Assembly (NCBI GenBank): GCA_025353765.1
Contig: JANXOD010000016.1
Coordinates: 1-64,000, forward strand
Reading direction: 5' to 3'
Source of the DNA: Sphingobacteriales bacterium
GTDB taxonomy: Bacteria > Bacteroidota > Bacteroidia > Sphingobacteriales > Sphingobacteriaceae
Length of the DNA stretch: 64,000 nucleotides
The translations under genes were made by a program, and so were the position numbers. Positions 8,847 through 24,534 of this stretch are shown here, piece by piece. Below the pieces are notes generated by a model. It worked only from the letters and a program-made list of their open reading frames with translations. It made no database searches and was not told the DNA's origin. Each line of letters begins with the position of its first letter. The first letter of the stretch is position 1.

Positions 8847-11800
8847 TTATTGTAATGTAAATCTTAAACTTACTCCAAAATTGCTAAAAGAGGTATTAAA
8901 CGTTTGAGAGGTATAAGGTTTGGTTACATTACCATCATAAAACATGCGAATATTAAATCTTTGATTTAATACGTAATCTACAGAAGGCCTTACGGTGATA
9001 TTTTTAGCACCCGATGAAACCTCTGCATCTTCTACATCTGCACGGTAGATCACTGTTTTGCGATCTGTAAGAGCAAAATCAACCTTAAAATTCATATCAT
9101 TATCCAGTTTTACCGTTTTGAATAATCCAAAAGGGAAACGAAATTTTGTAGTACGGTAACCCATTCCAAATACTACTCCACTTTCTTTTTGCTGAGCTAA
9201 CTGACTGTTAGATAAACTAAGGCTTAACGTTCTGGATTGGCGATACTCAAAATTGGTAGTTATATTGTTTTTAAACCTCACATCTACGCCCAAAAGAGGT
9301 ACAAACTGCTCGGCTAACGTAATTTGAGAAAATTGATAAAGTGGAAGAAAATCGCCGTTGACATCTCTCACACTTACCGCTCCATTAGTTTCCTGATAAC
9401 GCACCAATGAATTAAATCCGTTTACATTATAAGTAGAACGATAAGAATGATTAATATCAACGGAAGCAAAAATCTCATTAAAGAACTCATATTTAGTTAG
9501 GCCGTTATATGATATGCGCCAATTAGGTATAGGAATCTGGGGGAAACGGTTAAGTTTGATATTGTTAGCATCTTTACCTGTATAAGCTGCCAGAAATGAA
9601 GCAATTAAAACATCCTGAGAGTTTTTTCCATACCCATCTGCAAAGCCATCCGTTGTACCAACCGAATTAGGGTTTTGCCCGGCAATTCGTTTTGATATAA
9701 TAGACCGGTTATTTTCAAATTGTGTAAATAAACTTGATGAATTATTGCTTTTATTGTCTTTACTAAATGCGGTTAACAGTGAAAAATACGATATACTAAA
9801 ATCACCGGTAGTAACCGGGCTTAAGTTTTCGAAACTATTGTCTACAGGCAAAAATCTAAAATTAGTAGAATAGTTAAAACTGCGGCTACGCAAGGCTGTT
9901 AATTCAATACGGAGATCTTTAAACGGTTCTAAAGTTCCACGAAAATTAAGATCTTCTTTATAGGTTGTGACATATAATTGGCTGAGTAATGGATCGTTTG
10001 TGATCCATCCATTAGCTAAAGCCCGCCCGCGTATATCCCGCTGACTTCCAAAAACAAAATCATAACCGGGAGCATCCGAATAAAAATCTTGCCCCAAAAA
10101 TGTTGATTTTGGAATATAACCTGGTAAAAATGTGCCTTCTGTACGAGTGTAAGAGCCACTAACATTTTTTATACCTGTTAAAAAATTAATGAAAAATTTC
10201 CCCAGATTATCTTCGTTTTTGGCATCATTAGCTTTTCGCACAAATCCAAGTTTATTGTAAAGCGATGCAAAGCTCAGCGTTGGATTTACTTGAATAATAC
10301 GGCTGTTCTGTATTGTGTTTCCAAAATTAATAGTGGGATCATGCAGTGTAATTAAGGGCTCGCTTTGCCAGTTAAAACTGCCGCTGTAACGGGTTGAAAC
10401 AGTTATAAAATCTAAACCGGGTATTTTATTAATAGGCAAATTATAGGTTACATTAAACGTATGGTTATAGTCTGTAGTTCTACCCAATTTTTTTAAATTT
10501 TGCCAGATCGTATCTCTAACCAAACCAGTAATACGGCCATCGGGCTCATCTATGATTGAATTATTAGAGGCATTAAAATCTATTTGCATAGATTTTGTTA
10601 AACTCCAACTAAGGCCGTACACACGAGACATCTGGAAGTTTTTATTGAAATTTGTATTAAGAGGCAGAAAATTAGCAGGGTCATTATTGCGCAATGTATT
10701 TTCAGAATAAAGGCGATTTACATCTATGCGGAAATTAAATAACGATGGCAGCAGGCTAAAATTAAAATCACGGATTAAAGAGAATTTCTTTGATTTGATC
10801 AATTTTTCAAATGGAGTAAATGATTTTGACTGATTATTATAACTATAAGCTAAGCCGGCTTTATATGTTTTTTGCAATGAAAGTTCATTAATAAAGTCAT
10901 GATGATTAGATTCATTATAAGCATAAGTAGCACTCCAATTTTCAATATCCCAAGGGTGATTTTTACTAGATGAACCTGTTTTAATCTTCCTCACATTCGT
11001 AAAATTAATCCCTCTTCGTACAGTATAATCCTGCGCAATACGAAGTATAGAATCACGCTTGTCCTTAGGAGAATTAGCTAATGCCGTTTTTAATTCAATA
11101 TCTGGTGTTTGCGGATCATATTGAGGAGTACTGATTTGTGTTGAATAATTAACATATACCGGCAATTTAATCCCAGATTTTTTAGGCAAAAACTTTCCTA
11201 ATTCAATACTGGAAGAAACATCAAAAGAAACATTATCTGCACGGTTTCGCTCACTTACACGTTTATCTATGGAGCCAAAACCAACAGTACTTTTACTGCC
11301 CGATACGGTGACATCACCTAAATCTGCAAGCCTTGCACTTAACCTGGCGTTGGCGGCCCAGCCTCCTCCTTCATCAAAATCTGTGAGGCGAAGTTCATTA
11401 AACCAAACTTGTGCAGCTTTATCTAAGCCATCATCCCCAGGATTTGCCGGATTTGTAAGTGGATTTCTAACACCTAACATATATACACGAACTTTACTCA
11501 AATCCGGTTGCCCAAGCACAGTAATAGTATTTGCACCATCTTTATATGTGAAAGGCTTATTAGAAGGCCAGTTAGCATTATTACGAGCTGTTTTAGCGAT
11601 CTGAAATAATTTTAATTCTATATCAAGTTTATTTTGATCAGGCCAGATAGAATAAGGGTCACTCGTACCCGGATTTGTTACTTTTAAAGGAATATTATAT
11701 TCATAGTAGTTATCCTGATTATCAGATCCCACTCGAATGAACGCACTTACATCATTATCTTTTAACTGATCTCCCTCAGCATGAATAAACATTTCCATGT

Positions 11801-14800
11801 GCCCATAGGACCGGAAATCATTATATGTGGTACGAAAAGCTGCTCTGCTATAACCGTCACGCAGTTGTTTCACATCTACGGTTAAGGACTGCTCATTTTG
11901 TTGGGTATTGCCCTGGAAATTACTAAAATCGCGTTCCCGCGTGATACCTGGCGGCACTACATAAGGTATAGGTGTGCGCTTTCCATTTTCTTCAATATTT
12001 ACAGTTCCAACATCCAATATAGATTTATCTAAGCCAGGATTTCCTAATGCCGGATCTGCAATAGCTTTAGCCGGATTATTTTCTGCATTATATCGGCGCC
12101 ACTCTCCTCTAACTAATTGTAATTTAGCAAAGCGCATGATGGTGGTGTCTGCAAAATCTGTCATGAACATGCGCATAAAGCGAATGGACTTAAAATCCTG
12201 AATATTTCCTACTTTGTCTTGGAACTCGGCAATTGGTATTTTAAACTGAATCCATCGCTCATTTCCTTTTTTACCATTTGCTAATGTCACGATAGTGTTT
12301 ACAATATCAGCAATATGATTTTGGCCAACCGTTGCTAAATCCTGCGGCCGCATTGATACCTTGTATTGAAAATACTCATCAGCCTGAGTAGAGTTATTAT
12401 CGCGGTTAATATCTTCTCCATCTGGCAAGGAAGTAGAAGCAGAATTATCTATTCCTGTTTGAGCAAGCGATTGCTGAGTAGTTTTGGAATTACTTTCTGT
12501 ACCATTATATTTTTCGTACCGCTTTAAAATACCTGCGTTAATTTGATCTAAATTCGATCCCCTGTAGTATTGATAGTCATCTGATGCCGGATCTTCGTTT
12601 AAAACGGAAGCAGCCTGGGAGTTTATTTGGGCCTTAACTGTATTTAAGAAATCTGCAAACTGTTGCTGTTCATTTGCATCACTTAACCCATCTATACCCA
12701 CATCTTGAAATTTCCTGGAATCTGGGTTATTATCAAATGCCTGTATTACGGGTTGAAGTTTTGAGACTCTGCCCCAAACAGTTTGATCTGTTTTAGTGAG
12801 GTCACCATCAGCAGGAAGACCATTTTCTAAACTCTTTCTCCCATCCTTTAATATATCTTCAGAGATGTTTCCTAGGTTAAAATATAAATCTCCACCTTGA
12901 CTATTAGCTTTATATAAGAATGGATCAAGCACCCACATTTCAATAAACTCAATATTTAATGATTCAAAATCATTGGATTCCAATTTCCTGAATATTCCGC
13001 CCCAGCGACTCTTAGGATTTGCTAATGTTCCATCAGGATTTAAACCGGTTGTTGTAAAATTATAAGGGCCACGTAAAGTGGGATAATATGCAACATCGAA
13101 TGTAGGAAGCGTTACAGGTTGCCCTGTAGAGGATTCTTTAAAAGGAAAAACTTCTTTCTCCAATACTTCACGAGTATAATAATTAGATAACTCTGTTTTG
13201 TTTCCTTTAATATTAGGAGGTGTGGTTGTATTACTGGTGAAAAAAATGGGATCTATACTGTAATAGGCCATTCTGGCACGATTATAACCATATTCCAGGT
13301 TGTCTGTCAATTGAGCTTCGGGGAATAATTGCGGTGTACCGGATATTTGCCAGCTAATCGCACTTTTAACATCAATTAAAGATCTGCTGCCTTCGAAATC
13401 ATCCAGGTAACTGGTACCATTTTTACTTCCCGCAAAGTCGAGGGATTTTGGATGTCCCGGAACCAAATTGGCATATTCGCCTGTAAGTGTAATAGTTGAG
13501 ATTTCTTTGGTATTGATGAAAGGTATTTTATCAACCATCCTGGTAAGCCAGCGAGAATTTGAGGTATAATTTCCATCTATACCCCAAATAGTATTAGATA
13601 TAGATTCTTCCCCAATATTTACTTTTTGGCTTAGTGGTTTTTCGGTAAGGTTCATGAACGTACCGCCCAAATTAAATTTAGGGTTTACTTTATAATCAAA
13701 CCGGGCTCCTGTTAATGATCTTTGTTGTAAGCCAAAAAGTTCATTATTTTCCATTTTTATACGGATCGGTTGCCCCGAATTTAATAAAGCCTGGTTTAAA
13801 ATCCGGACACGCCCAATGTTATAATCCACTGTAAAATCAACACCTTCCTGTAATGGCAATGTACCGGCAGTAACCTGTACCGAACCCTGCGGAATATTGA
13901 TGGCATTTAATTGAAACTCAGAACTCGATTGTGATTGATATGTACCACTGATAACATACCTGTTTAATTTTGGGAAAAGCTGTTGAGCAACAACTTTAGT
14001 TGAATCATAAAGCGGCTGAAATACATATTTCGCAATTAAATTATCCTCTGCACCTGCAACAAAACCTGGTTTATCAGGAGCCGAGGGTTTAAATATCAAA
14101 TCAGAACCAAAAGGTTCTATAACAGGGAAAGTAATTCGTCCGTTTAAAGGATCAATGGTAACACCTTCAATAAAATCAAAATAACCATCGGCCTTACGAT
14201 CATTTTGTTGATTAAGATTGTCTAAGTCGGTTAACTGAAGCCATAATTTTCCTGTGGTCTTTGATCCCTCTGTAATTTGGGGTTTTTCTACTCCAGAATT
14301 TTCATCAAGCCTGAAAATATTCATCCGGAAATCAGTACGGCTAACCTGGTAAGCGCCTAAAGAATAGATATTCTTCATCATTAAATCCCAGGTTGGGAGT
14401 TTTGTTTTTAATGTTTCGTTTTTCAGCAACTTCACAAACAAAACTTTAGGAATTTCATTATCTACCGGAATATCTGTTGAAAACTCTCCTACCTGGTATT
14501 CAACTCCATTTATAGTATAGCGAAAAGCAACAGCCAGGACTTCATCTGTATTTAAAGAAGTATTTAAAGAGATATAACCCAATTGATGATTAAGGGTAAA
14601 TTCCTTATCAGTAAGTTTTCGGGCGTATGTTAATTTAGCAAAATTATCTGTTCCGCCATTTGCCTGAAAGTAATTAATCGCATCATTAGAGTTTGTAAGT
14701 CTTGAGTTGGGGGGCAAATTTTGCAAAAGATTATTAGATTGCTGTGTATAACCGGGACCTTTAAAACCTGCAGGCAGAACCGAAGTCCCTCCCTGTATTT

Positions 14801-15893
14801 GAACCTTATTATAAGGATCATTTTCTGCCAGATCTAAAAATGCTAAAACATCCCGGGAATCAACGGTACTACTTGTTTTGTTGGTTATCCAAACTTCTAT
14901 TTTGGTGATATTAATACCTGAGGTAACTATGGGGATTTTAGCCAATGCGGTATTATAGTTATCTCTAAAATATTGGGCTAAAAAATAATGCTTATTAGCT
15001 TCATAACTATCCGCTGAAATTCTAAAGTCGTTCTGTTGAGATCCATTAGTTATGGTTATTTCTTTCTGCTGTGATTTTTGTTGTGAAAAAACCGTGGTAA
15101 CATTTAAACGCCCGAACTGAAGTTGTGTTTTTAACCCGAATAAAGCCTGGCTACCTGTTATTAAACTCGAACTTAAGGGCAAACTCACATTACCAGCTTC
15201 AATTTTTTTAACTATATCATCTTCTTTGCCGGTATAATCTAATTTAACCTGATTTTCAAAATCAAATTGGGCTTCTGTATTATAATTAGTGCTGATTTTC
15301 AGGTTTTCGCCAATTTTACCCACTACGTTCATTTGAATTTTCTGATTAAAATCAAAATTTCCCTGAACGCGTTGACGTTCATTAAATAGCGGATTTTCAT
15401 TGCGATTTATCCGTCCTGCAAAGGTTAGTTCTGCACTTCCCTGCGGGCGAATATCTATAATTGAGCCTCCAAAAATGCGTTCGAATGCTTTGCTGTTTAC
15501 TTTAACCTGCGGAATAAAGCCTGGTTCACGGGCTTCGGCTAATGGTAAATTTGAAAGCTCTCGCCAATAATTATGTTTAATTAACTCGCTTTCATACCGT
15601 TCATATTCATCAATAGTTAAATATTGGGGAGCACGATATAAATGATCACCAATTTTTTCACGAATAACATATTTTTTTGTGAGGGGGTCAAACTCTATGC
15701 TCTTTTGAGTGTTTGAAGTATTAGGAAGTGAAAATCCAGTTTGAGGCCAAATTGGCAAAGTTTCGCGAAAGGGATTAATAAGTTTAGAAGTATCAATTCT
15801 AGCAACATTATTTTGTGCTATGGCATTTCCACCAAAAAAAATGAAGAAAAATAGAAATACCTTTAGTAAGGAAAAAGTAAAATGCTTTTTCAA
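8847..15893 (-). CDS. sprA: Type IX secretion system outer-membrane translocon SprA (cell surface protein SprA/Sov)
   Basis: A 2348-residue protein of the size and composition of SprA, the giant 36-strand beta-barrel that forms the T9SS outer-membrane channel. The start is TTG at 15893; there is no upstream in-frame ATG, and the encoded signal peptide (KKHFTFSLLKVFLFFF to about residue 26, NAIAQ) begins directly after it. The sequence is a long run of alternating beta-strand patterns with a final aromatic strand (SNFGVSLRFTLQ), typical of a barrel closing strand. It follows ruvA by 23 bases in the same direction. SprA works with PorV (48.7-49.9 kb here), which plugs or receives substrates at the lateral gate. 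Gliding motility in this organism is possible but not implied by SprA alone. Confidence 0.95.
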   Translation of the reverse strand: MKKHFTFSLLKVFLFFFIFFGGNAIAQNNVARIDTSKLINPFRETLPIWPQTGFSLPNTSNTQKSIEFDPLTKKYVIREKIGDHLYRAPQYLTIDEYERYESELIKHNYWRELSNLPLAEAREPGFIPQVKVNSKAFERIFGGSIIDIRPQGSAELTFAGRINRNENPLFNERQRVQGNFDFNQKIQMNVVGKIGENLKISTNYNTEAQFDFENQVKLDYTGKEDDIVKKIEAGNVSLPLSSSLITGSQALFGLKTQLQFGRLNVTTVFSQQKSQQKEITITNGSQQNDFRISADSYEANKHYFLAQYFRDNYNTALAKIPIVTSGINITKIEVWITNKTSSTVDSRDVLAFLDLAENDPYNKVQIQGGTSVLPAGFKGPGYTQQSNNLLQNLPPNSRLTNSNDAINYFQANGGTDNFAKLTYARKLTDKEFTLNHQLGYISLNTSLNTDEVLAVAFRYTINGVEYQVGEFSTDIPVDNEIPKVLFVKLLKNETLKTKLPTWDLMMKNIYSLGAYQVSRTDFRMNIFRLDENSGVEKPQITEGSKTTGKLWLQLTDLDNLNQQNDRKADGYFDFIEGVTIDPLNGRITFPVIEPFGSDLIFKPSAPDKPGFVAGAEDNLIAKYVFQPLYDSTKVVAQQLFPKLNRYVISGTYQSQSSSEFQLNAINIPQGSVQVTAGTLPLQEGVDFTVDYNIGRVRILNQALLNSGQPIRIKMENNELFGLQQRSLTGARFDYKVNPKFNLGGTFMNLTEKPLSQKVNIGEESISNTIWGIDGNYTSNSRWLTRMVDKIPFINTKEISTITLTGEYANLVPGHPKSLDFAGSKNGTSYLDDFEGSRSLIDVKSAISWQISGTPQLFPEAQLTDNLEYGYNRARMAYYSIDPIFFTSNTTTPPNIKGNKTELSNYYTREVLEKEVFPFKESSTGQPVTLPTFDVAYYPTLRGPYNFTTTGLNPDGTLANPKSRWGGIFRKLESNDFESLNIEFIEMWVLDPFLYKANSQGGDLYFNLGNISEDILKDGRKSLENGLPADGDLTKTDQTVWGRVSKLQPVIQAFDNNPDSRKFQDVGIDGLSDANEQQQFADFLNTVKAQINSQAASVLNEDPASDDYQYYRGSNLDQINAGILKRYEKYNGTESNSKTTQQSLAQTGIDNSASTSLPDGEDINRDNNSTQADEYFQYKVSMRPQDLATVGQNHIADIVNTIVTLANGKKGNERWIQFKIPIAEFQDKVGNIQDFKSIRFMRMFMTDFADTTIMRFAKLQLVRGEWRRYNAENNPAKAIADPALGNPGLDKSILDVGTVNIEENGKRTPIPYVVPPGITRERDFSNFQGNTQQNEQSLTVDVKQLRDGYSRAAFRTTYNDFRSYGHMEMFIHAEGDQLKDNDVSAFIRVGSDNQDNYYEYNIPLKVTNPGTSDPYSIWPDQNKLDIELKLFQIAKTARNNANWPSNKPFTYKDGANTITVLGQPDLSKVRVYMLGVRNPLTNPANPGDDGLDKAAQVWFNELRLTDFDEGGGWAANARLSARLADLGDVTVSGSKSTVGFGSIDKRVSERNRADNVSFDVSSSIELGKFLPKKSGIKLPVYVNYSTQISTPQYDPQTPDIELKTALANSPKDKRDSILRIAQDYTVRRGINFTNVRKIKTGSSSKNHPWDIENWSATYAYNESNHHDFINELSLQKTYKAGLAYSYNNQSKSFTPFEKLIKSKKFSLIRDFNFSLLPSLFNFRIDVNRLYSENTLRNNDPANFLPLNTNFNKNFQMSRVYGLSWSLTKSMQIDFNASNNSIIDEPDGRITGLVRDTIWQNLKKLGRTTDYNHTFNVTYNLPINKIPGLDFITVSTRYSGSFNWQSEPLITLHDPTINFGNTIQNSRIIQVNPTLSFASLYNKLGFVRKANDAKNEDNLGKFFINFLTGIKNVSGSYTRTEGTFLPGYIPKSTFLGQDFYSDAPGYDFVFGSQRDIRGRALANGWITNDPLLSQLYVTTYKEDLNFRGTLEPFKDLRIELTALRSRSFNYSTNFRFLPVDNSFENLSPVTTGDFSISYFSLLTAFSKDNKSNNSSSLFTQFENNRSIISKRIAGQNPNSVGTTDGFADGYGKNSQDVLIASFLAAYTGKDANNIKLNRFPQIPIPNWRISYNGLTKYEFFNEIFASVDINHSYRSTYNVNGFNSLVRYQETNGAVSVRDVNGDFLPLYQFSQITLAEQFVPLLGVDVRFKNNITTNFEYRQSRTLSLSLSNSQLAQQKESGVVFGMGYRTTKFRFPFGLFKTVKLDNDMNFKVDFALTDRKTVIYRADVEDAEVSSGAKNITVRPSVDYVLNQRFNIRMFYDGNVTKPYTSQTFNTSFSNFGVSLRFTLQ

Positions 15894-15916: not shown

Positions 15917-16501
15917 TTATAAACTTTTCAGGGCAATTTTTATCAATTGTTCTACTGATAAAGTTTCATTTCCTGATTTAATTGCTAAATCTATAGCTTT
16001 TTCTGCAACGTTTTTTGTAAAGCCTAACATAACCAATGCAGATAACGCTTCTTCTTTCGCTGTAGTATGCAATGGCATAGAAATTAATGTGTCCGGACCT
16101 TCCTTCTTTAACTTATCCTGTAGTTCTAAAATCATTCGTTGAGCAGATTTAGGCCCAATTCCTTTAATTCGTTGTATCAAAGGAACATCTCCCTGAACAA
16201 TAGCAGTTTGGATTTCGGCAGGAGTAATAGATGATAAAATCATACGTCCGGTATTAGGCCCGATACCAGATACTGAAATAAGGTGTAAAAACAACCGCTT
16301 TTCTCCTTCTTCAAAAAAACCATATAAAGTATGCGCATCTTCTTTTACATGAAGCCATGCAAATAATTTACATTCTTCTTTATCCTGTAATGCGGCATAA
16401 GTATTCAAAGAAATATTAATATGATAACCTATACCAGCCGCTTCTATAACTACATAAGTAGGGCATTTGAAAGTTAATTTACCTTGAATATAAGCATACA
16501 T
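15917..16501 (-). CDS. ruvA: Holliday junction branch migration protein RuvA
   Basis: 194 residues; binds four-way DNA junctions and recruits the RuvB helicase. The N-terminal OB fold starts [11 protein letters not shown]; two helix-hairpin-helix motifs are visible at SVSGIGPNTGRMIL (about 77-90) and IKGIGPKSAQRMI (about 112-124); the C-terminal RuvB-binding domain runs from about 145 (EEALSALVMLGFTKNVAEKA). Its ATG overlaps the maeB stop by one base (TAATG) and sprA follows closely, so it sits in the middle of a maeB-ruvA-sprA run. As I recall, this neighbourhood recurs in other Bacteroidota. Confidence 0.96.
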   Translation of the reverse strand: MYAYIQGKLTFKCPTYVVIEAAGIGYHINISLNTYAALQDKEECKLFAWLHVKEDAHTLYGFFEEGEKRLFLHLISVSGIGPNTGRMILSSITPAEIQTAIVQGDVPLIQRIKGIGPKSAQRMILELQDKLKKEGPDTLISMPLHTTAKEEALSALVMLGFTKNVAEKAIDLAIKSGNETLSVEQLIKIALKSL

Positions 16502-18831
16502 TATTCAGCAGATTTACGTATGCGATTAAAAATACCTTTTTTACGTACTGCTTCGCCCAAGCTCTTTTCTTCTTTTGTTTGTGCATCGACAACCGCAATA
16601 GTTACCATATTTACAATTTCACGTACCGAACTTCCTAATTGTAAAACATGTACGGGTTTTTTCATACCCAATAAAATTGGCCCAACTGCTTCAGCATCTC
16701 CTAATTCCTGTAATAATTTATAAGCAATATTACCTGATTCTAATGTTGGAAAAACTAAAACATTTGCCGGTGCTCCGTTTAGGATACTGAATGGAAAATT
16801 ATCTTTTAACAAATTGGGATTTAAAGCAAAATTAGCCTGCATATCTCCGTCTACTACAACTTCCGGATATTTTTCATGCAGTATTTTTACAGCCTGCCGC
16901 ATTTTTTCTGGTACAGGTCCTTCATTAGAGCCAAAGTTAGAATAGGATAGCATGGCAATACGTGGATGGATATTAAATTTTTTGACAGAACGATCAAGTA
17001 ATATGGTAATATCTACCAATTCTTCTACTGTTGGATTTACGTTTACGGTTGCATCTCCAAAAAAAACAGGGCCTTTTTTAGTAAGCATCATATACATCCC
17101 GGCTACACGGTTAACACCGTCCTCGGTACCAATAATTTGTAAAGCAGGTTTTATAGTAGATGCATAATTTTTAGTCAAGCCGGATATTAAAGCATCTGCT
17201 TCGCCAAATTGAACCATAGAAGCACCGTAATGATTACGATCACGCATTAATTTTTTAGCTTCAAACAAGGTTATTCCCCTACGTTGACGCATTTGAAATA
17301 GATGTTCTGTATATTGAGCTGCTTTACTATTTTCCTCAAGCGGATCAATCATCAAAACACCCTCAAGCTCCAATTCATTTTCATTTATAATTTGTTTGAT
17401 ACGCTCTTTATTACCCAATAAAATAGGAATTGCGATACCATCATCCTTTACTATTTGTGCTGCTTTTAATATTTTATAATTATCTGCTTCTGCAAATACA
17501 ACACGTTTTGGTGATGATTTTGCTTTATTTGTTACCGCACGAAGCAATTTATCATCCATCCCCAAACGGGTTTTTAATTCTTCTTTATAAGCTTCCCAAT
17601 CTGTTATAATTTTACGGGCAACGCCAGATTCAATAGCTGCTTTGGCAACAGCGGGCGATACCGCGGTAATTAAGCGAAAATCTATAGGCTTTGGGATGAT
17701 ATAATCTTTACCAAATTTTAAATTCTTGATATTGTAAGCCATATTTACAGCTTCGGGAACGGGCTTTTTTGTTAGCTCTGCAATAGCTTTAACAGCCGCA
17801 ATTTTCATTTCTTCATTTATCGCGGTAGCTCTAACATCCAATGCTCCACGGAAAATATAAGGAAACCCCAATACATTATTAACCTGATTTGGATAATCAG
17901 AACGGCCTGTAGCCATGATCATATCTTTACGGGTACTAATGGCTAATTCATATCCTATTTCCGGATCCGGATTGGCCATCGCAAAAACAATTGGGTTTTT
18001 AGCCATCGTTTTCAACATCTCTACTGTTAAAACATCGGGAGAAGAAAGTCCGATAAAAACATCAGCATCCTTCATTGCTTCTGTAAGCGTATTTATTTTA
18101 CGGGGAGTGGCAAACTCTGCTTTAGTACCTTCCAATTTATCCCGATCAATACGGATAACGCCGGTACGGTCAAGCATCACAATATTTTCTCGCTTTGCAC
18201 CTAAACTAACGTAAAGGCGTGTACAGGAAATAGCTGCTGCACCAGCTCCGTTTACTACAATTTTAACTTTATCGAGCTTTTTTTTCTGAATTTCACAAGC
18301 GTTAATCAATGCGGCAGATGAAATAATAGCAGTTCCATGCTGATCATCATGCATTACCGGAATGCTCATTTCCTCTTTGAGCCTGCGTTCAATTTCAAAA
18401 CATTCCGGAGCTTTAATATCTTCCAGGTTAATCCCGCCGAAGGTGGGTTCTAAAGCCTTTACTATATTTACAAACTCATCAATATTCTTTGTGTCTAACT
18501 CTAAATCAAACACATCAATATCTGCGAATATTTTAAAAAGTATGCCCTTACCTTCCATTACTGGTTTTCCAGCTTCGGGACCAATATCGCCAAGGCCTAA
18601 TACAGCAGTTCCGTTACTGATAACAGCTACTAAATTCCCCTTAGCGGTATATCTATAAACGTCTTCTTTATTTTCAGCAATTTTTAAACAGGGTTCTGCT
18701 ACGCCAGGCGAATAAGCTAACGCCAAATCACGTTGAGAATTGGTGGGTTTCGTAGAAACGACTTGGATTTTCCCCGGACGTCCTTGTGAATGGTAATCCA
18801 GTGCATCTTGCTTACGATTAGTTTTACTCAT
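16501..18831 (-). CDS. maeB: NADP-dependent malic enzyme with C-terminal phosphotransacetylase-like domain
   Basis: 776 residues. Oxidatively decarboxylates malate to pyruvate with NADP. The malic enzyme domain (1-430) contains [10 protein letters not shown], the acidic metal site [10 protein letters not shown] and a Rossmann segment [12 protein letters not shown]. The remaining part (about 435-776) is a phosphate acetyltransferase-like domain ([32 protein letters not shown]) that is regulatory, not catalytic, in MaeB proteins. I start at ATG 18831; an in-frame TTG at 18849 would add six residues not expected in the family. A TAATTTTG -7 element (18854-18861) lies 22 bases upstream. Confidence 0.95.
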
Positions 18832-18853
18832 TTTGAGAAATTGGTGCAAGCGG

Positions 18854-18861
18854 CAAAATTA
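18854..18861 (-). promoter_or_regulatory. Candidate -7 element upstream of maeB
   Basis: TAATTTTG read leftward fits TAnnTTTG, 22 bases before the maeB ATG. No TTTG is found at the proper distance upstream, so only half of the consensus is present. It would head the maeB-ruvA-sprA run. Confidence 0.4.
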
Positions 18862-19254
18862 CAATTCTTTTCGGAATTGAGTTTAAGAAAATCTTAGTAG
18901 TTGCAATTGGGAGTTTTTATAAAAAATATTGAAAAGCGGAAGACAAATCTCAACTTTTTTTAAATAAATTAACATTTGGAATAATTTCTCATTTTAAAAA
19001 ATTATCCTCATTTTTTATCTCAAATAATGAGATAATCTGTATATTTAAGAGATTGTTATGGATAGTCGGGTTTAATTCTATCTAAAATATTCATTCTAAG
19101 AATAGCCGGATTCAGACTGCCATTCTTGTGGCATCTTCAGTATAAATGTTATACTATATGGGGATATCTATCATATACTTTTAGTATTAGTCTCCTGTCT
19201 TACATTTATATAAAAACTAACAATTTATTGTGTATGATAAAAATTACATATAAA
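18862..19254. other. Divergent AT-rich intergenic region
   Basis: About 440 bases separate the divergent maeB and VKOR-fusion genes. No ORF with coding character is seen. It is strongly AT-rich, contains one clear inverted repeat (19015-19035) and the beginning of a promoter for the rightward gene. The sudden length and AT content fit a boundary between housekeeping DNA and the accessory cassette to the right. Confidence 0.5.
19015..19035. repeat. Perfect 8-bp inverted repeat
   Basis: TTATCTCA (19015-19022), a 5-base spacer, then TGAGATAA (19028-19035). A partial related sequence (TTTCTCATTTT) occurs about 30 bases upstream. Could be an operator for the cassette at 19.3-23.1 kb; no poly-T tract, so not a terminator. 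Confidence 0.4.
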
Positions 19255-19280
19255 TTGACATATATTAAATATTAAATTTG
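19255..19280 (+). promoter_or_regulatory. Candidate promoter of the VKOR-fusion gene
   Basis: TTG (19255-19257) and TAAATTTG (19273-19280) with a 15-base spacer, shorter than the usual 19-21. The -7 box is a full match and lies 19 bases before the ATG at 19300. Confidence 0.45.
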
Positions 19281-19299
19281 CAGAATTAATTACTTGTAA

Positions 19300-20913
19300 A
19301 TGAATTTAACGACTAAGCTATCCTATCTTAATCCATTATATATGCATGAGCCTGTATCATTTACTTTATTCCAGTTTTTAAAGAAGCAGGGAATTAAATT
19401 AAATAATGATACTCTTCAGCAAGAATTAAGTCAACATCCTTACTATCCAAGTTTATTAAGTATTAGTGATGTTTTGAATGGGATGGGTATACCGCATGAG
19501 GCTTACCAAATAGGTATAGATGCATTTCTTAAGAATTTTCACAAACCCCTATTTACTCATTTAAAAATACAGGGAAAAGAAATTTTTGCTGTAATTGAAC
19601 ATTATGATGGTGATAAACTCAAGATTATAACCGAAAAAGCAGAAACACAATGGTACTCTAAAGAAGAATTCGAAAAAATATGGAACGGTGTTTTACTTGA
19701 ACTTACTAACGAAGAAAAATCGCATTTAACTACCACCAATAATCAAAAGGAAATTTACCCATCGCCAGTTAAATATGGTGCTTTTGCTTTTGCTTTATTT
19801 GTCTTAGGGTATTTGATTTATTTAAGAACGCCCTTATTCTCTATACAGCAAATTATTTTTTTTGTACTCAATTCTGCCGGAATAGTCATTTCATGGATAT
19901 TAGTTTTACAACATTTGAATAAAAACAATATACTGGTTAAACAACTCTGTCAAAGTAAAACACAGGAAGGCTGTGACTCTGTACTAAACAGCAAAACTTC
20001 TCAAATAACTTCATGGCTAAGTATAGCAGAGGCCGGATTGATATACTTTACAGGTGCGACTTTATCCGTCCTACTTTTTAGTACTCCTATATTTTATTTT
20101 TATTTGGCTTTAATTGCTCCACTTTACTCTTTATATGCCATTTATATCCAGGCTTTTGTTTTAAAGGAATGGTGTCGTTTATGTATGGGAATTCATGCTA
20201 TAGTATTTACTAGCTCTATTTTTGTATTGGTATTTGACAGAACCCTTTTTTCAATACTGGCTTGGCCAGGCATCCCTCAATTTATTGTTTTCTTAATTCT
20301 TATACCCGCATGGCTAATTATCAATACTATTCTTAAAAAGATAATAGAAAGAGGGCATTATAAGCAGGAATACCTCCGATTTAAAGTAGACCCTGAACTG
20401 TTTAAATGCTGTATGAATAAACAGCCTAAAGTTAATATCCCAAATGAACTAAAAGTATTCTCCATTGGTAATTTAGAAGCTGAACATGAACTAACTTTTG
20501 TTTCTAATCCCTTTTGTGGCCCATGTGCCGAAGCTCATAAAATTATTGAAGAATGGCTACAATATGGCGATTTAGACTTTAAAATCACTGTTATTTTTTC
20601 ACATGCTAACGATGAACAGGACCGGAACAAACAATTTGTGGAATGGATTTCTGGAATAACTGCTAAGGAGCAATTTAAATCTGTATTACACAATTGGTTT
20701 AATTCTGATAAAAAAGATTTTTCAGCTTGGGCGAGGAAATTGCAACTGAACAAAACAGATTTAAAATATGATACAGAGGTCCTACAGAAATGGATGGATA
20801 TGGCTGAAGTAAAAGCTACACCTACTTTCTTTATCAATGGTTACCGCTTATCAAAAAAGTATCAATTAGAAGATATTAAATACCTGATTACAGAAATAGA
20901 ACCAATTGCTTAA
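19300..20913 (+). CDS. C39-peptidase-like / vitamin K epoxide reductase / thioredoxin fusion protein
   Basis: 537 residues in three parts. Residues 1-140 resemble a C39 bacteriocin-leader peptidase fold (HPYYPSLLSISDVLNGMGI, then a DGDKLKII strand) but contain no Cys, so it cannot be an active cysteine peptidase; leader binding is possible. Residues about 155-345 are a VKOR membrane domain with five to six helices, loop cysteines C217 and C225, and the active CxxC in EWCRLCMG (292-295). Residues about 380-537 are a thioredoxin/DsbA-like domain with CGPC (406-409) and a cis-Pro region KATPTFFING. VKOR-Trx fusions make disulfides in exported proteins. The gene is followed by a six-Cys double-glycine peptide, its likely substrate. 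Architecture is seen directly; the substrate link is inferred from adjacency. Confidence 0.88.
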   Translation: MNLTTKLSYLNPLYMHEPVSFTLFQFLKKQGIKLNNDTLQQELSQHPYYPSLLSISDVLNGMGIPHEAYQIGIDAFLKNFHKPLFTHLKIQGKEIFAVIEHYDGDKLKIITEKAETQWYSKEEFEKIWNGVLLELTNEEKSHLTTTNNQKEIYPSPVKYGAFAFALFVLGYLIYLRTPLFSIQQIIFFVLNSAGIVISWILVLQHLNKNNILVKQLCQSKTQEGCDSVLNSKTSQITSWLSIAEAGLIYFTGATLSVLLFSTPIFYFYLALIAPLYSLYAIYIQAFVLKEWCRLCMGIHAIVFTSSIFVLVFDRTLFSILAWPGIPQFIVFLILIPAWLIINTILKKIIERGHYKQEYLRFKVDPELFKCCMNKQPKVNIPNELKVFSIGNLEAEHELTFVSNPFCGPCAEAHKIIEEWLQYGDLDFKITVIFSHANDEQDRNKQFVEWISGITAKEQFKSVLHNWFNSDKKDFSAWARKLQLNKTDLKYDTEVLQKWMDMAEVKATPTFFINGYRLSKKYQLEDIKYLITEIEPIA

Positions 20914-21114
20914 ACCCTCGGGCAATTAAAAAATGTGAGGGACATCGGTTAAACTAAAATTTAACAACAAAATAGATAATCTTTAAGAATGGAGACAACT
21001 CCTTGAAGTTAAATTTAGAAACAAAAGGTAGATGATAGCCCAGGGGCAATCTAAAACAGGCAATAACCTGCCAAAAGGTGAAATAGTTTATTAATTTAGT
21101 TAATTAAAAACAAA

Positions 21115-21306
21115 ATGGAAACAGAAAAATTAGTTTTTAAGGATATTAAGAAGATTCTTAAACGCGATGAAATGAAAAAAATTATGGGTGGCAGTGGCTC
21201 AGGTTGCGCAAATGAGTGCTCCGGAGATAGCAGAGTTTGCCCGGGAGGCCAGTATTGCCGTGAAGTTGCCTGCGGCGGTCAAACCATTTATTGGATGTGT
21301 TATTAA
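21115..21306 (+). CDS. Double-glycine leader peptide precursor with six-cysteine core
   Basis: 63 residues. The leader (1-26) ends RDEMKKIMGG, the classic GG processing site for C39 peptidases. The 37-residue core is Gly-rich and hydrophilic with six Cys at core positions 5, 9, 16, 22, 27 and 36, enough for three disulfides, or two disulfides plus modified Cys. It lies 200 bases after the VKOR-Trx fusion and has its own terminator. I do not recognise a named family for the core. Likely product: a secreted, disulfide-bonded peptide, possibly a bacteriocin or signal. Confidence 0.8.
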   Translation: METEKLVFKDIKKILKRDEMKKIMGGSGSGCANECSGDSRVCPGGQYCREVACGGQTIYWMCY

Positions 21307-21333
21307 TTAAACTATCTAGTTTATTATAATAAT

Positions 21334-21372
21334 AAAAACTGAGTTTTCGATGTATTCGGAAACTCAGTTTTT
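21334..21372 (+). terminator. Rho-independent terminator after the six-Cys precursor
   Basis: A 13-bp perfect stem (21334-21346 with 21360-21372; core AAACTGAGTTT) with a 13-base loop; the right arm ends in a run of seven T. It separates the precursor gene from the downstream glycosyltransferase-like gene, so the precursor can be made in excess of the enzymes. Confidence 0.85.
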
Positions 21373-21426
21373 TATTTATGATGCTTCAATAACTAGTCGA
21401 GCTACTTATACCTCACATATTTCTAT

Positions 21427-23094
21427 ATGAAAATAATACAAACGTTTTGGTCTTGCAAGCAGTCTAATTTGCTGAATTTTAATGCTGGCTGGATAGCTCC
21501 TGAGTATAATTTGATGTCATGGGCATTAAGTTGTTTGCAATTAAGGCAGTATTATGAAGATGTCACTCTATATTCTGATACCACTTCGGCTAAAATGTTA
21601 ATTGATATCCTTAAACTACCTTATACTAATGTGGTTTGTAATTTGGATTCCTTAAATCATTATCATAAAGATCTTTGGGCAATGCCTAAAATACATACAT
21701 ATTCTCAGCAAGAAACTCCCTTTTTACATGTAGATGGAGATGTTTATATATGGAAAAAATTTGAAGATACATTACTTAATAGTAGTTTAATTGCCCAGAA
21801 TTTAGAAGCTGCTACAGATTATTATGGCAAAATAATAACTTCATTAGAAAGAGAATTGGCTTTTTTCCCAAAAGAGATAATGGCTGAACGCAAGCTTAAC
21901 AGTGAAGTATTCGCTTACAATGCTGGCATTTTGGGTGGTATCAATTATCCATTTTTTAAACAATTTGCTGAAAAAGCCGTTGAATTTGTTGATAATAATA
22001 TCTCCTGTTTAGAGAATATAAACATCACTGATTTTAATCTTTTTTTTGAGCAATATCTATTCTATTGCTATGCAAAGCAGAAAAATTTAGAGGTAAATGT
22101 TTTATTATCTGATACAATTGGTGATAATGAATACATTAATTTCGGAGACTTTTGTGATGTTCCTTATAACAAGCAATACCTGCATTTATTAGGATCATAT
22201 AAGAGAAGCAAGCAAGTTTGCCAACAATTAGCAAATCAACTACGAAAAGAGTATCCAGAATATTATTACAGAATAATTTCCCTGTATAAACAAAGTAATA
22301 CGTCTCTATTTATAGATCATTATGCCGATCTAAAAAATCCGTCTGAGCAGGATTTGGTATCCCGCTACAATACATTAAATAATAAATTTCTAAAAGATAA
22401 TTTATCACATGAAGACTTTATAAGAGAACAAAAATACAAAAATGATGAAATACCATGCTATAGAACTGATTTTTTAGAACAATTAATAAATTCAGCAGGG
22501 TTCACTTCGATCATGTCAGAACATTTTATTCACAACAATATTCCTCCACAAAAAGATAGAGACTATGATTTAATTTTAAAAGACCTGAAAGAATTTGAGA
22601 CTACTATCATTCACATTCAAAAAACTAAATTCCATGCTTTATCTAAAGAGTATTTCTATTTGCGAGATATTCATGCAACACACTACGCTCGTTTACTCTT
22701 TGAGCATACAGAACATATTCATGAAAAAGTTATTGTAAGTGATGATTTAATAGAAAAGATTAAAAGTAGATATGATTGGAGCAATATTGAAACTAATGGA
22801 ACTTTAAGTAATTATAAAACCATTCAACAATTAGCTCAGCCTCCGGGAAACATCTACACTATCATCATACCAGAATCCACCCGAATAGGATATTCCCTGT
22901 TAAACATAGATGAACTTGATTCCTTAATATTGACAACCATACAAAATCCGATATCTATCGGGAATTTCTTAAACCAAATGAAACCGTTTTTTGATGAAGA
23001 GGATTTAAAAGCATCGCAATCAGAATTTGAAGAATTGATATTGGGAAGGGTTAAAATGGGACTTCAAAATAAAACTATTAGAGTTTTACAATAG
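21427..23094 (+). CDS. DUF6734-like glycosyltransferase-fold protein with C-terminal winged-helix-like domain
   Basis: 555 residues. The N-terminal 270 residues look like a GT-A sugar-nucleotide transferase: an early IQTFW/NAGWIAPEYNL segment, then PFLHVDGDVYIWKKFE (about 97-112), whose DGD is placed like a metal-binding DxD, then YNAGILGGINYPFF. I believe this is the family called DUF6734, often near double-glycine peptides in Bacteroidota, but that is recall. The C-terminal part (about 485-554; INIDELDS-type helix, ILTTIQNPISIGNFLNQM, LGRVKMGLQNKTIRVL) has the pattern of a PqqD/RRE-like winged helix that binds leader peptides; this is an inference from pattern. Position after the precursor suggests it modifies that peptide. 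No transporter follows. Confidence 0.7.
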   Translation: MKIIQTFWSCKQSNLLNFNAGWIAPEYNLMSWALSCLQLRQYYEDVTLYSDTTSAKMLIDILKLPYTNVVCNLDSLNHYHKDLWAMPKIHTYSQQETPFLHVDGDVYIWKKFEDTLLNSSLIAQNLEAATDYYGKIITSLERELAFFPKEIMAERKLNSEVFAYNAGILGGINYPFFKQFAEKAVEFVDNNISCLENINITDFNLFFEQYLFYCYAKQKNLEVNVLLSDTIGDNEYINFGDFCDVPYNKQYLHLLGSYKRSKQVCQQLANQLRKEYPEYYYRIISLYKQSNTSLFIDHYADLKNPSEQDLVSRYNTLNNKFLKDNLSHEDFIREQKYKNDEIPCYRTDFLEQLINSAGFTSIMSEHFIHNNIPPQKDRDYDLILKDLKEFETTIIHIQKTKFHALSKEYFYLRDIHATHYARLLFEHTEHIHEKVIVSDDLIEKIKSRYDWSNIETNGTLSNYKTIQQLAQPPGNIYTIIIPESTRIGYSLLNIDELDSLILTTIQNPISIGNFLNQMKPFFDEEDLKASQSEFEELILGRVKMGLQNKTIRVLQ

Positions 23095-23142
23095 TTTTAG
23101 CAAATAGAATATTGCCTCGTTTTAACATGTCAAAATACCAAC

Positions 23143-24534
23143 TTACCCTCTATTAATCTTTAAAATTTTGCCGGGCTGAACATTAGATTTTTTCAATCCA
23201 TTTAAAGCTTTCAACTTGGATACTGTTGCTCCTTTAAATTTTTCGGCAATTTCTGATAAGGTATCTCCAATTTTAACTCTATAAGTAAGGTATTTTGTAG
23301 CCTCCTTGTGGTGGATTAAAGTTGTAGAAGAGTTTAATTTAATAATTTGTCCCGGTACAACTCTGGTGGTTTTTAAGTGATTCCAAACTTTTAAATCCTG
23401 AACTTCAACGCCGTATCGGTCGGCTACCTCATTTAATGTTTCACCCCTTTTAAGTTTATGTGAGGCCGGTTTAGATCTGTTATTACCTACATCATCTCGC
23501 GTACTTGCAGTAATGATTTGTACTTCATCCTGATTATTTAAAACCTCGTATAACGAAGCATATACTTTCTTATCCACCAAAGGAATAACAAGACGCTTGG
23601 GGAAATCTATTGAACCATTGATAAATTGTTTTTTATAGGATGGATTTAAAACAGTTAATTCTTTTATATCTAAATCAGCAGCTTTAGCAATACTTGCTAA
23701 GGGGATCATTTTATTTACCTCAATAACATCCGTAAAAATATTAAAATTAGGCGTCGTTGGTATAATATCATGCTTCATGTAATAATTCATTGCATAAGCC
23801 GTAGCAATAAAGGCAGGAACATAATTTTGGGTTTCTTTGGGAAGATAAGATCGTATGGCCCAAAAATTTGCTTCCCCACCAGCACGTGCAATAGCCCTGG
23901 TTACTGCACCCGTACCACAGTTATAAGCGGCAATAGCCAATAACCAATCCCCGAGTCTATTATATGCATCTTTAAAATATAGTGCTGCCGCATAGCTTGC
24001 CTTTACCGGATCTTTGCGCTCATCCACATAATTATCCATAACCAAACCATATCCTTTGGCTGTGGTATACATAAACTGCCATGGCCCCAGTGCTCCCGAA
24101 TGTGAAACTGCATGTGGATTCAAAGCAGACTCTATAATGGAAACAAACTTAATTTCATCAGGAACACCTACTTCCTTTAATGCTTTTTCAAATATTGGGA
24201 AATAGTATTTAGATAATCCAACCATTCTGCCAATTTGATCTTTGCGTTTAGTAACATATAAATCTATATACGTCTGTACATGCTCATTATATGTTAATGG
24301 GATGCCACTTTGTAAAGAATCTAATCTCCTTTTATAAACCAGGTTTTGATACGATGATAAGGGATTAACATCAATTGGGGGCACGAATAATAATGTATCT
24401 GAAACAACATCCTGTGATTTTTTAACCTCTGTAACAACTATTAAATTAGACTTGGGTTGACTTCCTCTAGTAATTGCCATCGTTGAAATAGCAATCAATA
24501 TGAATGTGGCTGTAGCCAGTATTTTTCTAATCAT
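23143..24534 (-). CDS. Membrane-bound lytic murein transglycosylase D-like protein with two LysM domains
   Basis: 463 residues. A signal peptide (1-about 20) is followed by an SLT domain (about 100-260) with the catalytic Glu in IIESALNPHAVS and the family motif GALGPWQFMYTTA, and AIAAYNCGTGAV. Two LysM peptidoglycan-binding repeats end the protein: HKLKRGETLNEVADRYGVE (about 363-405) and YRVKIGDTLSEIAEKF (about 420-462). It cleaves the glycan strand of peptidoglycan with 1,6-anhydro end formation. It is transcribed leftward, convergent with the cassette to its left, and is separated from upstream gatA by a terminator. Confidence 0.93.
   Translation of the reverse strand: MIRKILATATFILIAISTMAITRGSQPKSNLIVVTEVKKSQDVVSDTLLFVPPIDVNPLSSYQNLVYKRRLDSLQSGIPLTYNEHVQTYIDLYVTKRKDQIGRMVGLSKYYFPIFEKALKEVGVPDEIKFVSIIESALNPHAVSHSGALGPWQFMYTTAKGYGLVMDNYVDERKDPVKASYAAALYFKDAYNRLGDWLLAIAAYNCGTGAVTRAIARAGGEANFWAIRSYLPKETQNYVPAFIATAYAMNYYMKHDIIPTTPNFNIFTDVIEVNKMIPLASIAKAADLDIKELTVLNPSYKKQFINGSIDFPKRLVIPLVDKKVYASLYEVLNNQDEVQIITASTRDDVGNNRSKPASHKLKRGETLNEVADRYGVEVQDLKVWNHLKTTRVVPGQIIKLNSSTTLIHHKEATKYLTYRVKIGDTLSEIAEKFKGATVSKLKALNGLKKSNVQPGKILKINRG

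What the first reader, a model, noticed from the sequence alone, without database searches (positions are those of the whole stretch)
19300..23094. Possible disulfide-bonded, glycosylated peptide cassette: C39-like/VKOR/Trx fusion, six-Cys precursor and GT-like protein with winged-helix tail
Seen: a 63-residue GG-leader peptide with six Cys in a 37-residue core, flanked by a membrane disulfide catalyst (VKOR CxxC plus Trx CGPC) and a protein with a GT-A-like N-terminus (HVDGDVYIW) and a C-terminal segment resembling a PqqD/RRE winged helix. Known: glycocin clusters such as sublancin combine a GG precursor, a peptide glycosyltransferase, thiol-disulfide oxidoreductases and a C39 transporter. 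Inference: this is an independent Bacteroidota version in which the disulfide enzyme also carries a catalytically dead C39-like domain that could hold the leader.
Basis: partly seen in the sequence, partly recalled or inferred. Interest (0 to 1): 0.82.

Follow-up and report, generated by a model that had tools for sequence, protein, structure and literature searches.

The report
Likely sugar-tagged disulfide peptide cassette
A Bacteroidota bacterium carries a three-gene set that most likely makes a small secreted peptide held by three disulfide bonds and marked with a sugar, using a sugar-transferring enzyme with its own built-in peptide-recognition domain; the two halves are known elsewhere, but I found no description of this combination.

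Summary
Observation confirmed. 19300-20913 encodes a C39-like/VKOR/thioredoxin fusion, 21115-21306 a 63-aa GG precursor (26-aa leader, 37-aa core, six Cys), 21427-23094 a 555-aa DUF6734 protein. The C39-like domain lacks its catalytic Cys motif in 44 of 44 distinct fusions; all six redox Cys are invariant.

The fusion plus a Cys-rich GG peptide is a common unit (39 of 51 DUF6734-free loci). The RRE-tailed DUF6734 is an accessory. The genome has two more copies of the cassette; the likely exporter is an orphan PCAT/HlyD pair about 222 kb away.

Two results go beyond the finding. With DUF6734 and fusion both near, the first core residue is Ser, Tyr or Cys in 28 of 30 peptide clusters; with the fusion alone it is S/T/Y in 15 of 62. 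This suggests the glycosylation site. An extra membrane helix and loop charges suggest that the oxidase faces the cytoplasm, where the leader is still attached. Glycosylation, disulfides and leader binding are inferred, not shown.

The parts
19300..20913 (+). C39-like / VKOR / thioredoxin fusion (537 aa)
19300..19716 (+). C39-like domain (about residues 1-139), catalytically dead: profile positions 1-21, with the catalytic Cys (recalled), are not matched
   Evidence: 0 of 44 distinct fusions have the catalytic Cys motif against 36 of 43 PCATs
19768..19824 (+). extra transmembrane helix (residues 157-175) in front of the VKOR core; predicted to invert the VKOR topology
   Evidence: hydropathy; VKOR proteins without a C39 hit have one or no such helix
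19855..20223 (+). VKOR domain (residues 186-308) with loop Cys 217/225 and CRLC 292/295
   Evidence: Cys invariant in 44 of 44
20461..20889 (+). thioredoxin domain (residues 388-530), CGPC 406-409
   Evidence: Cys invariant in 44 of 44
21115..21192 (+). GG leader of the precursor (26 aa, ends MKKIMGG)
   Evidence: TIGR04149-like leader below cut-off (19 of 25 bits)
21193..21306 (+). 37-aa core with six Cys and Ser at +1 (SGSGCANEC...), plus stop codon
21334..21372 (+). terminator-like hairpin between precursor and DUF6734 gene
   Evidence: 17 pairs; 6 terminator-like sites in 18850-23200, 1.7 expected in shuffles
21427..23094 (+). DUF6734 protein (555 aa)
21427..22293 (+). GT-A (GT8-like) domain, residues 1-289; DxD at 103-105, HxxGxxK at 253-259
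22834..23091 (+). RRE-like winged-helix domain (residues about 470-555) at the C terminus

Best explanation
The locus makes a ribosomal peptide with three disulfides and one or more sugars. Most likely order of steps: (1) the precursor is made with a GG leader (shown by sequence and homologs). (2) The leader is held by leader-binding domains on both enzymes: the dead C39-like domain on the oxidase and the RRE on the glycosyltransferase (domains shown by profile and model; binding inferred). (3) The VKOR/Trx part oxidises the six Cys, passing electrons to quinone (cysteines shown; reaction inferred from the family). (4) The DUF6734 GT-A domain transfers a sugar from a nucleotide sugar to the core, most likely to the first residue after GG (Ser here) (fold by model and DxD shown; donor, linkage and site inferred; site suggested by covariation). 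(5) A PCAT/HlyD exporter encoded elsewhere in the genome removes the leader and exports the peptide (orphan pair shown; assignment inferred). The product is probably an antibacterial or signalling peptide (inferred from the class of locus). My probabilities: DUF6734 acts on this precursor 0.8; the reaction is glycosyl transfer 0.8; the oxidase forms the disulfides of this peptide 0.85; acceptor at +1 0.4; oxidase active sites facing the cytoplasm 0.55.
For: GT-A fold: model pLDDT 91.2, pTM 0.91; glycogenin Z 13.0, rmsd 3.6, 204 residues; LgtC Z 11.9, rmsd 4.0, 226 residues; UGGT Z 11.7; Foldseek top glycogenin-2 E 1.3e-4. D103, D105, G167, G170, G171, H253 and K259 invariant in 61 sequences. 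RRE: tail modelled alone, pLDDT 87.1; MibB Z 9.5, TigE 8.6, TbiB1 8.2, TbtB 8.2, MccB 8.1, MadB 7.7, lasso B1 7.5, TglHI 7.0, PqqD 6.4 (that the matched stretches are the RREs of these proteins is recalled). Context: 52 of 63 tailed DUF6734 have a PCAT, C39-VKOR, LanB or GG Cys-peptide nearby, and bare-domain DUF6734 sits by NRPS genes (6 of 7 against 1 of 63, p 3.7e-7), as expected if the tail is for ribosomal precursors. No C39 catalytic motif and six invariant redox Cys in 44 of 44 distinct fusions. +1 residue S/T/Y/C in 28 of 30 against 15 of 62 peptide clusters, p 1.3e-10; inside Sphingobacteriales 10 of 11 against 15 of 61, p 5e-5. Three copies in one genome; orphan PCAT/HlyD on the same contig.
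Against: No biochemical data. 11 of 63 tailed DUF6734 show none of the four RiPP markers counted, and 35 of 63 lack the fusion, so the pairing is not obligatory. The RRE is not recovered by sequence: no PqqD Pfam hit, hhalign against a 5-sequence PqqD profile gives 2% probability, E 0.025, and Foldseek's best E for the tail is 0.025. The tool warns that Z under 8 may be only a common arrangement, and non-RRE winged-helix proteins stand between and below the RREs (NGO1945 8.0, PKMT2 7.2, GdmN 6.7, NovN 6.4, BmdB 6.1, MINA53 5.9, NO66 5.4). The +1 motif was seen before it was tested (post hoc), and the two samples differ in taxonomy; near DUF6734 without the fusion it is only 9 of 13. No exporter lies in the cassette. 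G184, with a relative of the peptide, has no DUF6734 match in its genome, so the sugar, if any, is not needed for the peptide type.
Confidence: 0.62

Rival explanations
1. The C39-like/VKOR/Trx fusion and the six-Cys peptide are the working unit (a plain disulfide bacteriocin or signal peptide), and the DUF6734 gene beside it is a passenger that acts on something else.
For: 39 of 51 DUF6734-free C39-VKOR loci have a Cys-rich GG peptide; G184 has a homologous six-Cys peptide and no DUF6734 match in its genome; DUF6734 also sits in LanB, LanC-like and NRPS loci.
Against: DUF6734 is next to the fusion in all three copies in this genome and near it in 28 of 63 tailed cases; its tail is nearest to RREs by fold; the +1 residue of the peptide covaries with its presence.
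Confidence: 0.15
2. DUF6734 acts on the precursor but is not a glycosyltransferase: the GT-A fold does another nucleotide-dependent transfer, or only presents the peptide.
For: No paper in the searched library names the family (0 papers); GT-A folds are shared with nucleotidyltransferases, e.g. RmlA among the Foldseek hits.
Against: The best matches are glycosyltransferases: glycogenin, LgtC, UGGT, alpha-1,3-galactosyltransferase, LARGE1; DxD is invariant, HxxGxxK invariant or nearly so.
Confidence: 0.13
3. A true glycocin-type cluster acquired from Firmicutes.
For: Same logic of GG precursor, disulfide enzymes, transferase and PCAT, as described for the thg and org clusters in PMC12457901 (introduction and cluster section read).
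Against: The transferase family differs (DUF6734 is the only Pfam family over its cut-off); a VKOR fusion stands in place of separate thioredoxin-like proteins; six Cys with another spacing. The 80 DUF6734 loci kept in the named survey are Bacteroidota by title, plus one Chlorobiota MAG among them (235 were confirmed, 155 not seen).
Confidence: 0.03
4. The oxidase acts on the periplasmic side in the usual VKOR orientation, on the already exported, leaderless peptide, and the C39-like domain has another role.
For: Canonical VKOR-Trx proteins face outwards (recalled); sublancin-type disulfides form outside the cytoplasm (recalled). Hydropathy counts are threshold-dependent: with another threshold one own-genome fusion (L216) scored one helix, not two.
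Against: Exactly two helices precede the loop Cys in 39 of 44 distinct fusions, three in 4, one in 1; K/R sit on the loops with the active sites (4.2 and 2.1 per sequence) and the flanks (3.4 and 5.9), not on the shorter opposite loops (0.44, 0.06, 0.45); 12 VKORs without a C39 hit have 0-1 helix there and 11 of 12 have at most 2 K/R in the loop. An outside C39-like domain could not meet a leader that PCAT has already cut in the cytoplasm.
Confidence: 0.4

Closest known systems
Glycocins (sublancin, glycocin F, thermoglycocin, orniglycocin)
   Same: GG or GK leader, Cys-rich core, dedicated thiol-disulfide enzymes, peptide glycosyltransferase, PCAT export (PMC12457901: abstract, introduction and cluster section)
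   Different: Transferase is GT8-like DUF6734 with an RRE-like tail, not the SunS-type GT2 (recalled); oxidase is one C39-like/VKOR/Trx polypeptide; six Cys; no exporter in the cluster; transferase is an accessory
Bacteroidetocins (class IIf)
   Same: Bacteroidota GG peptide with disulfides, dedicated thiol oxidoreductase, PCAT (PMC6671954 passages)
   Different: The two described there have four Cys, a 15-aa leader, 42-aa core and a 5-TM protein gene; 'glycosyl' occurs 0 times in that text
RRE-glycosyltransferase fusions reported from genome mining
   Same: A glycosyltransferase domain fused to an RRE was noted by RRE-Finder (PMC7470986 passages) and for PF00535 in PMC12710340 (passages)
   Different: PF00535 is a GT2 family (recalled); DUF6734 is not named in PMC12710340 (0 hits); no link to a VKOR fusion or six-Cys peptide is stated in the passages seen
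Glycogenin and LgtC (GT8)
   Same: GT-A fold, DxD, HxxGxxK arrangement (motif recalled); glycogenin sugars a Tyr (recalled), and Tyr is one of the residues found at +1
   Different: About 10% identity over 204-226 aligned residues; DUF6734 has an RRE-like tail
Aeropyrum pernix VKOR
   Same: A VKOR reported to promote disulfides in two compartments through its topology (title in a reference list only; paper not held)
   Different: Archaeal; whether it has any fused domain was not seen

Membership tests
RiPP recognition element (RRE) | winged-helix fold with N-terminal beta strands and three helices, matching known RREs | tested here: met
   nine RiPP proteins at Z 6.4-9.5, five of them above 8; that the matched stretches are their RREs is recalled; non-RRE winged helices score 5.4-8.0
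RiPP recognition element (RRE) | sequence profile similarity to PqqD (PF05402) | tested here: inconclusive
   no Pfam hit; hhalign 2%, E 0.025 against a 5-sequence profile
RiPP recognition element (RRE) | binds the leader peptide | not testable with these tools
   needs binding assay or co-folding
GT-A glycosyltransferase, GT8-like | GT-A fold | tested here: met
GT-A glycosyltransferase, GT8-like | DxD metal/nucleotide motif | tested here: met
   D103 and D105 invariant in 61 sequences
GT-A glycosyltransferase, GT8-like | HxxGxxKPW motif (recalled for GT8) | tested here: inconclusive
   H253 and K259 invariant, G256 at least 90%; the PW part is absent in the window protein
GT-A glycosyltransferase, GT8-like | sugar transfer activity | not testable with these tools
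   needs enzyme assay
Glycocin | SunS-type GT2 transferase (PF00535; recalled) | tested here: not met
   only DUF6734 passes its cut-off
Glycocin | PCAT in the cluster | tested here: not met
   none seen beside the cassette; orphan PCAT/HlyD about 222 kb away
Glycocin | dedicated thiol-disulfide enzymes | tested here: met
   VKOR and Trx domains
Glycocin | sugar on Ser, Thr or Cys of the core | not testable with these tools
   mass spectrometry needed
Bacteroidetocin | four Cys, 15-aa leader, 42-aa core (PMC6671954) | tested here: not met
   six Cys, 26-aa leader, 37-aa core
Bacteroidetocin | adjacent 5-TM protein gene and PCAT | tested here: not met
   no further gene of that kind seen in or beside the cassette (ORF lists)
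C39 peptidase | catalytic Cys motif | tested here: not met
   0 of 44 distinct fusions; 36 of 43 PCATs, where some misses are variants of the motif or miscalled starts

The most novel reading that the evidence does not exclude
A leader-guided cytoplasmic assembly line: an inverted C39-like/VKOR/Trx oxidase, its active sites facing the cytoplasm because of one extra helix, docks the GG leader on a dead protease domain and folds the six-Cys core before export; then an RRE-guided GT8-like enzyme puts a sugar on the first core residue (Ser, Tyr or Cys), giving a peptide with a glycosylated N-terminal residue after leader removal.
Probability: 0.28. Interest if true: 0.82.

Novelty: new variant of a known kind. 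Interest (0 to 1): 0.62.

Why it matters
It would give a function to a Pfam family of unknown function (DUF6734) that turns up in RiPP, lanthipeptide and NRPS loci of Bacteroidota, and add a GT8-like, RRE-guided class to the few known peptide glycosyltransferases. The fusion would be a self-contained, leader-directed disulfide machine in a phylum whose Bacteroides members are said to lack general disulfide machinery (PMC6671954 passage). In a 41-genome sample of the family, 12 of 14 VKOR matches lie in frames of 528-561 aa, the size of this fusion, so VKOR there seems largely devoted to such proteins. The predicted inward-facing orientation makes the place of disulfide formation directly testable.

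Tried and rejected
Sequence search of DUF6734 against the PDB gave nothing; the fold comparison placed it. Search for PqqD by sequence was inconclusive. Search for papers naming DUF6734 gave none; searches combining VKOR with RiPP, bacteriocin or C39 terms gave nothing on point in what was listed (in one search none of the 12 papers listed, of 54 found, contains 'vkor'). These searches cover open-licence PMC papers only. I considered S-glycosylation of an odd Cys: the window core has six Cys, which argues for an O-linked sugar here; but odd-Cys cores do occur near DUF6734 and the fusion (7 of 30 clusters against 2 of 62, p 0.005), so S-linkage elsewhere is open. I considered a shared six-Cys framework: 8 of 92 clusters (30 with DUF6734 and fusion, 62 with the fusion alone) fit a pattern drawn from these same sequences, against a mean of 0.15 in shuffles; post hoc. 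I considered that a tail simply marks all DUF6734: 11 of 95 proteins are bare, 290-307 aa; five of the seven with full flanks are beside a LanC-like gene, and three bare ones have PCAT nearby (L138, L148, L149), so the tail/RiPP link is strong but not absolute. Topology control: 1 of 12 VKORs without a C39 hit (L252) has a charged loop (6 K/R), against the trend; two of the twelve (L235, L236) look near-identical; 'without C39' means no phmmer hit to the window's own C39-like domain, which is not sensitive; 18 frames from loci L212-L253 were usable. An earlier, stricter version of this control gave 7 usable frames.

Rows dropped or moved: 6 of 129 GG peptides judged chance ORFs by eye; the L063 peptide was moved by hand to the DUF6734 group, as DUF6734 is in that locus beyond my 5-kb limit; L107, whose DUF6734 is on the other strand, stayed in the fusion-only group; cleavage sites of L071, L129 and L187 were re-sited. 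Six loci fetched twice and the split gene L087 were removed but not; three doubled fusions were removed but not. The 51 fusion-only loci are from among the better matches, not a random draw; one search found a fusion in 51 and DUF6734 in none of them. The window and the two other own-genome copies are not among the 70 DUF6734 proteins (flanks held were too short or not included). One search stopped with a script error and was rerun.


Full report
What is there. The three genes exist as described. They form a + strand island between genes on the opposite strand (16501-18849 and 23143-24534; by eye a malic enzyme and a lytic transglycosylase, not searched). I saw no exporter beside them. Contigs of two genomes of its family (G134:C8, 1298885 bases; G267:C32, 157934 bases) have the lengths of a named Mucilaginibacter and a named Pedobacter contig, so I take it as Sphingobacteriaceae.

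The same genome has the cassette three times. Contig C6 carries two more fusions and two more DUF6734 genes in about 12.6 kb. Between fusion and DUF6734 lies a GG peptide (L009:8884-9138, eight core Cys; L010:1786-1980, four) and a thioredoxin-family protein. The third copy looks worn: its fusion is split by a frameshift and its peptide ends YWMRY where the window peptide ends YWMCY. The second copy's DUF6734 has an HTH-like end in place of the RRE-like tail (Pfam hits below cut-off).

The 555-aa protein. Residues 1-286 are DUF6734. A model built on 61 sequences has pLDDT 91.2 and pTM 0.91. Its first 289 residues match GT-A enzymes: glycogenin Z 13.0 (rmsd 3.6, 204 residues), LgtC Z 11.9 (rmsd 4.0, 226 residues), UGGT Z 11.7. 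The Foldseek E-values are moderate (1.3e-4 at best). D103, D105, H253 and K259 are invariant in 61 sequences. The tail modelled alone (residues 426-555, 50 sequences, pLDDT 87.1) matches RiPP proteins at the top of the list: MibB Z 9.5 (rmsd 2.3, 86 residues), TigE 8.6, TbiB1 8.2, TbtB 8.2, MccB 8.1, then MadB 7.7, a lasso B1 protein 7.5, TglHI 7.0, PqqD 6.4; that the matched stretches are their RREs is recalled. Winged-helix proteins that are not RREs stand among and below them (NGO1945 8.0, PKMT2 7.2, GdmN 6.7, NovN 6.4, BmdB 6.1, MINA53 5.9, NO66 5.4), and the tool warns that Z under 8 can mean only a common arrangement. Foldseek's best E for the tail is 0.025, to TglHI. Sequence methods do not recover the RRE; RRE-Finder's authors note that pairwise similarity is often missed for fused RREs (passage). 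The case for an RRE rests on fold plus context.

Where DUF6734 occurs. In 300 genomes of the order, 19 have DUF6734 and 122 have a match to the fusion protein (some of the latter are weak or partial). A named scan confirmed 235 relatives among 281 pattern matches and kept 80 loci, by title Bacteroidota apart from one Chlorobiota MAG. Two plasmid records, of Emticicia and Hymenobacter, carry it too. After removing duplicates, 70 DUF6734 proteins have 5 kb on both sides: 63 tailed and 7 bare. Of the 63 tailed, 37 have a PCAT, 28 the fusion and 31 a Cys-rich GG peptide; 52 have at least one of these or LanB; 20 have fusion and peptide, 18 of these with PCAT; 11 have none. Bare ones sit by NRPS genes (6 of 7 against 1 of 63, p 3.7e-7) and next to LanC-like genes (5 of 7 against 2 of 63, p 3.5e-5). 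So the tail goes with ribosomal precursors, as an RRE should, with exceptions (L138, L148 and L149 are bare with a PCAT nearby). Related loci were not down-weighted in these tests.

The fusion. In 44 distinct fusions all six redox Cys are invariant and none has the C39 catalytic Cys motif, which 36 of 43 PCATs show. It is often found without DUF6734: of 51 such loci, 39 have a Cys-rich GG peptide and 30 a PCAT in the stretch held. G184, of the same genus, has a peptide of the same six-Cys type and no DUF6734 match in its genome. DUF6734 is therefore an add-on.

Which way it faces. Exactly two hydrophobic helices precede the loop cysteines in 39 of 44 distinct fusions, three in 4 and one in 1. 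Averaged over the family, K/R per sequence are 3.4 in 20 residues before the first helix, 4.2 in the 33-residue Cys loop, 2.1 in 12 residues at the CxxC and 5.9 in 26 residues after the last helix, but 0.44, 0.06 and 0.45 in the other three, shorter loops (6-10 residues). The same four stretches also hold acidic residues (3.4, 2.1, 0.2 and 2.6). Twelve VKORs without a C39 hit have one helix there (11) or none (1), and 11 of 12 have 0-2 K/R in the loop; L252 has 6. In the same call the six frames from loci with a C39 hit have 4-5 K/R in the loop; four score two helices and two score one (L216, and L225 from the frameshifted copy). With the positive-inside rule (recalled), this puts the C39-like domain, both VKOR cysteine pairs and Trx in the cytoplasm. 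It is an inference from composition only.

The first core residue. From 153 loci searched I collected 129 different GG peptides with at least three core Cys, dropped six as chance ORFs and clustered the rest. The first core residue is S, T, Y or C in 28 of 30 clusters near both DUF6734 and the fusion (17 S, 7 Y, 4 C, no T), in 9 of 13 near DUF6734 without the fusion, and in 15 of 62 near the fusion alone (p 1.3e-10, first against last). Position 2 is enriched in Gly (17 of 30 against 7 of 62, p 8e-6). For S/T/Y/C no other of the first twelve positions comes near +1 (next best p 0.007). Within Sphingobacteriales it is 10 of 11 against 15 of 61 (p 5e-5). Genome G021 shows several kinds: Y at +1 in the locus with DUF6734 and fusion (L060), V and I in its DUF6734-free fusion locus (L179), but A in its DUF6734 locus without the fusion (L052). 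I read this as a likely acceptor site; a preference of exporter or transferase for a start motif is the plain alternative.

Export. The genome has two PCAT/HlyD pairs. One is on contig C10 with genes that look like a grasp-with-spasm cluster (by eye). The other is alone on the window's contig at C20:245307-248996; I saw no modifying gene near it and a scan found no GG peptide of 35-130 aa with an ATG start in the 19.9 kb around it. It is my candidate exporter.

Verdict. It works like a glycocin pathway but is not one by transferase family. RRE-glycosyltransferase fusions have been listed by genome mining (passages), so the architecture as such is not unheard of; a GT8-like DUF6734-RRE enzyme tied to a dead-C39/VKOR/Trx oxidase and Cys-rich peptides did not appear in what ten paper searches listed. 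Glycosylation, disulfides, leader binding and activity remain inferred.

Noticed in passing
L009:11502-12725 (own genome C6): A DUF6734 gene whose RRE-like tail is replaced by a helix-turn-helix end that resembles a recombinase or transposase tail (Pfam HTH hits below cut-off).
   Followed up: partly
L010:1-1555 and 1786-1980 (own genome C6): Third cassette copy appears to be decaying: oxidase split by a frameshift, peptide left with four Cys.
   Followed up: partly
L009:10558-11448: A GH19 chitinase-like gene sits inside the second cassette copy.
   Followed up: partly
L088:8826-9995, L097:8785-9948: DUF6625 (PF20330; Pfam for L088, phmmer for L097), possibly another transferase, stands near DUF6734 in some loci (9 of 63 tailed).
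   Followed up: partly
L058, L062, L097, L133, L136: A bare DUF6734 stands next to a LanC-like protein of about 600-680 aa inside or near NRPS genes; an unusual pairing (Pfam run only for L058 of these).
   Followed up: partly
NC_018749.1:25925-27547 and NZ_CP053909.1:109874-110791: DUF6734 genes on plasmids of Emticicia oligotrophica and Hymenobacter sp..
   Followed up: no
L162 (own genome C10): A small contig with a PCAT/HlyD pair and genes that look like a grasp-with-spasm (graspetide-type) cluster (by eye).
   Followed up: no
window 8847-15893: A 2348-aa ORF that looks like SprA of the type IX secretion system (by eye).
   Followed up: no
L070 and L161: By eye, the orphan PCAT/HlyD pair of the own genome lies in a GNAT/ThiE neighbourhood; the same neighbourhood in G184 is about 5 kb from the C39-VKOR gene and lacks the pair.
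   Followed up: partly
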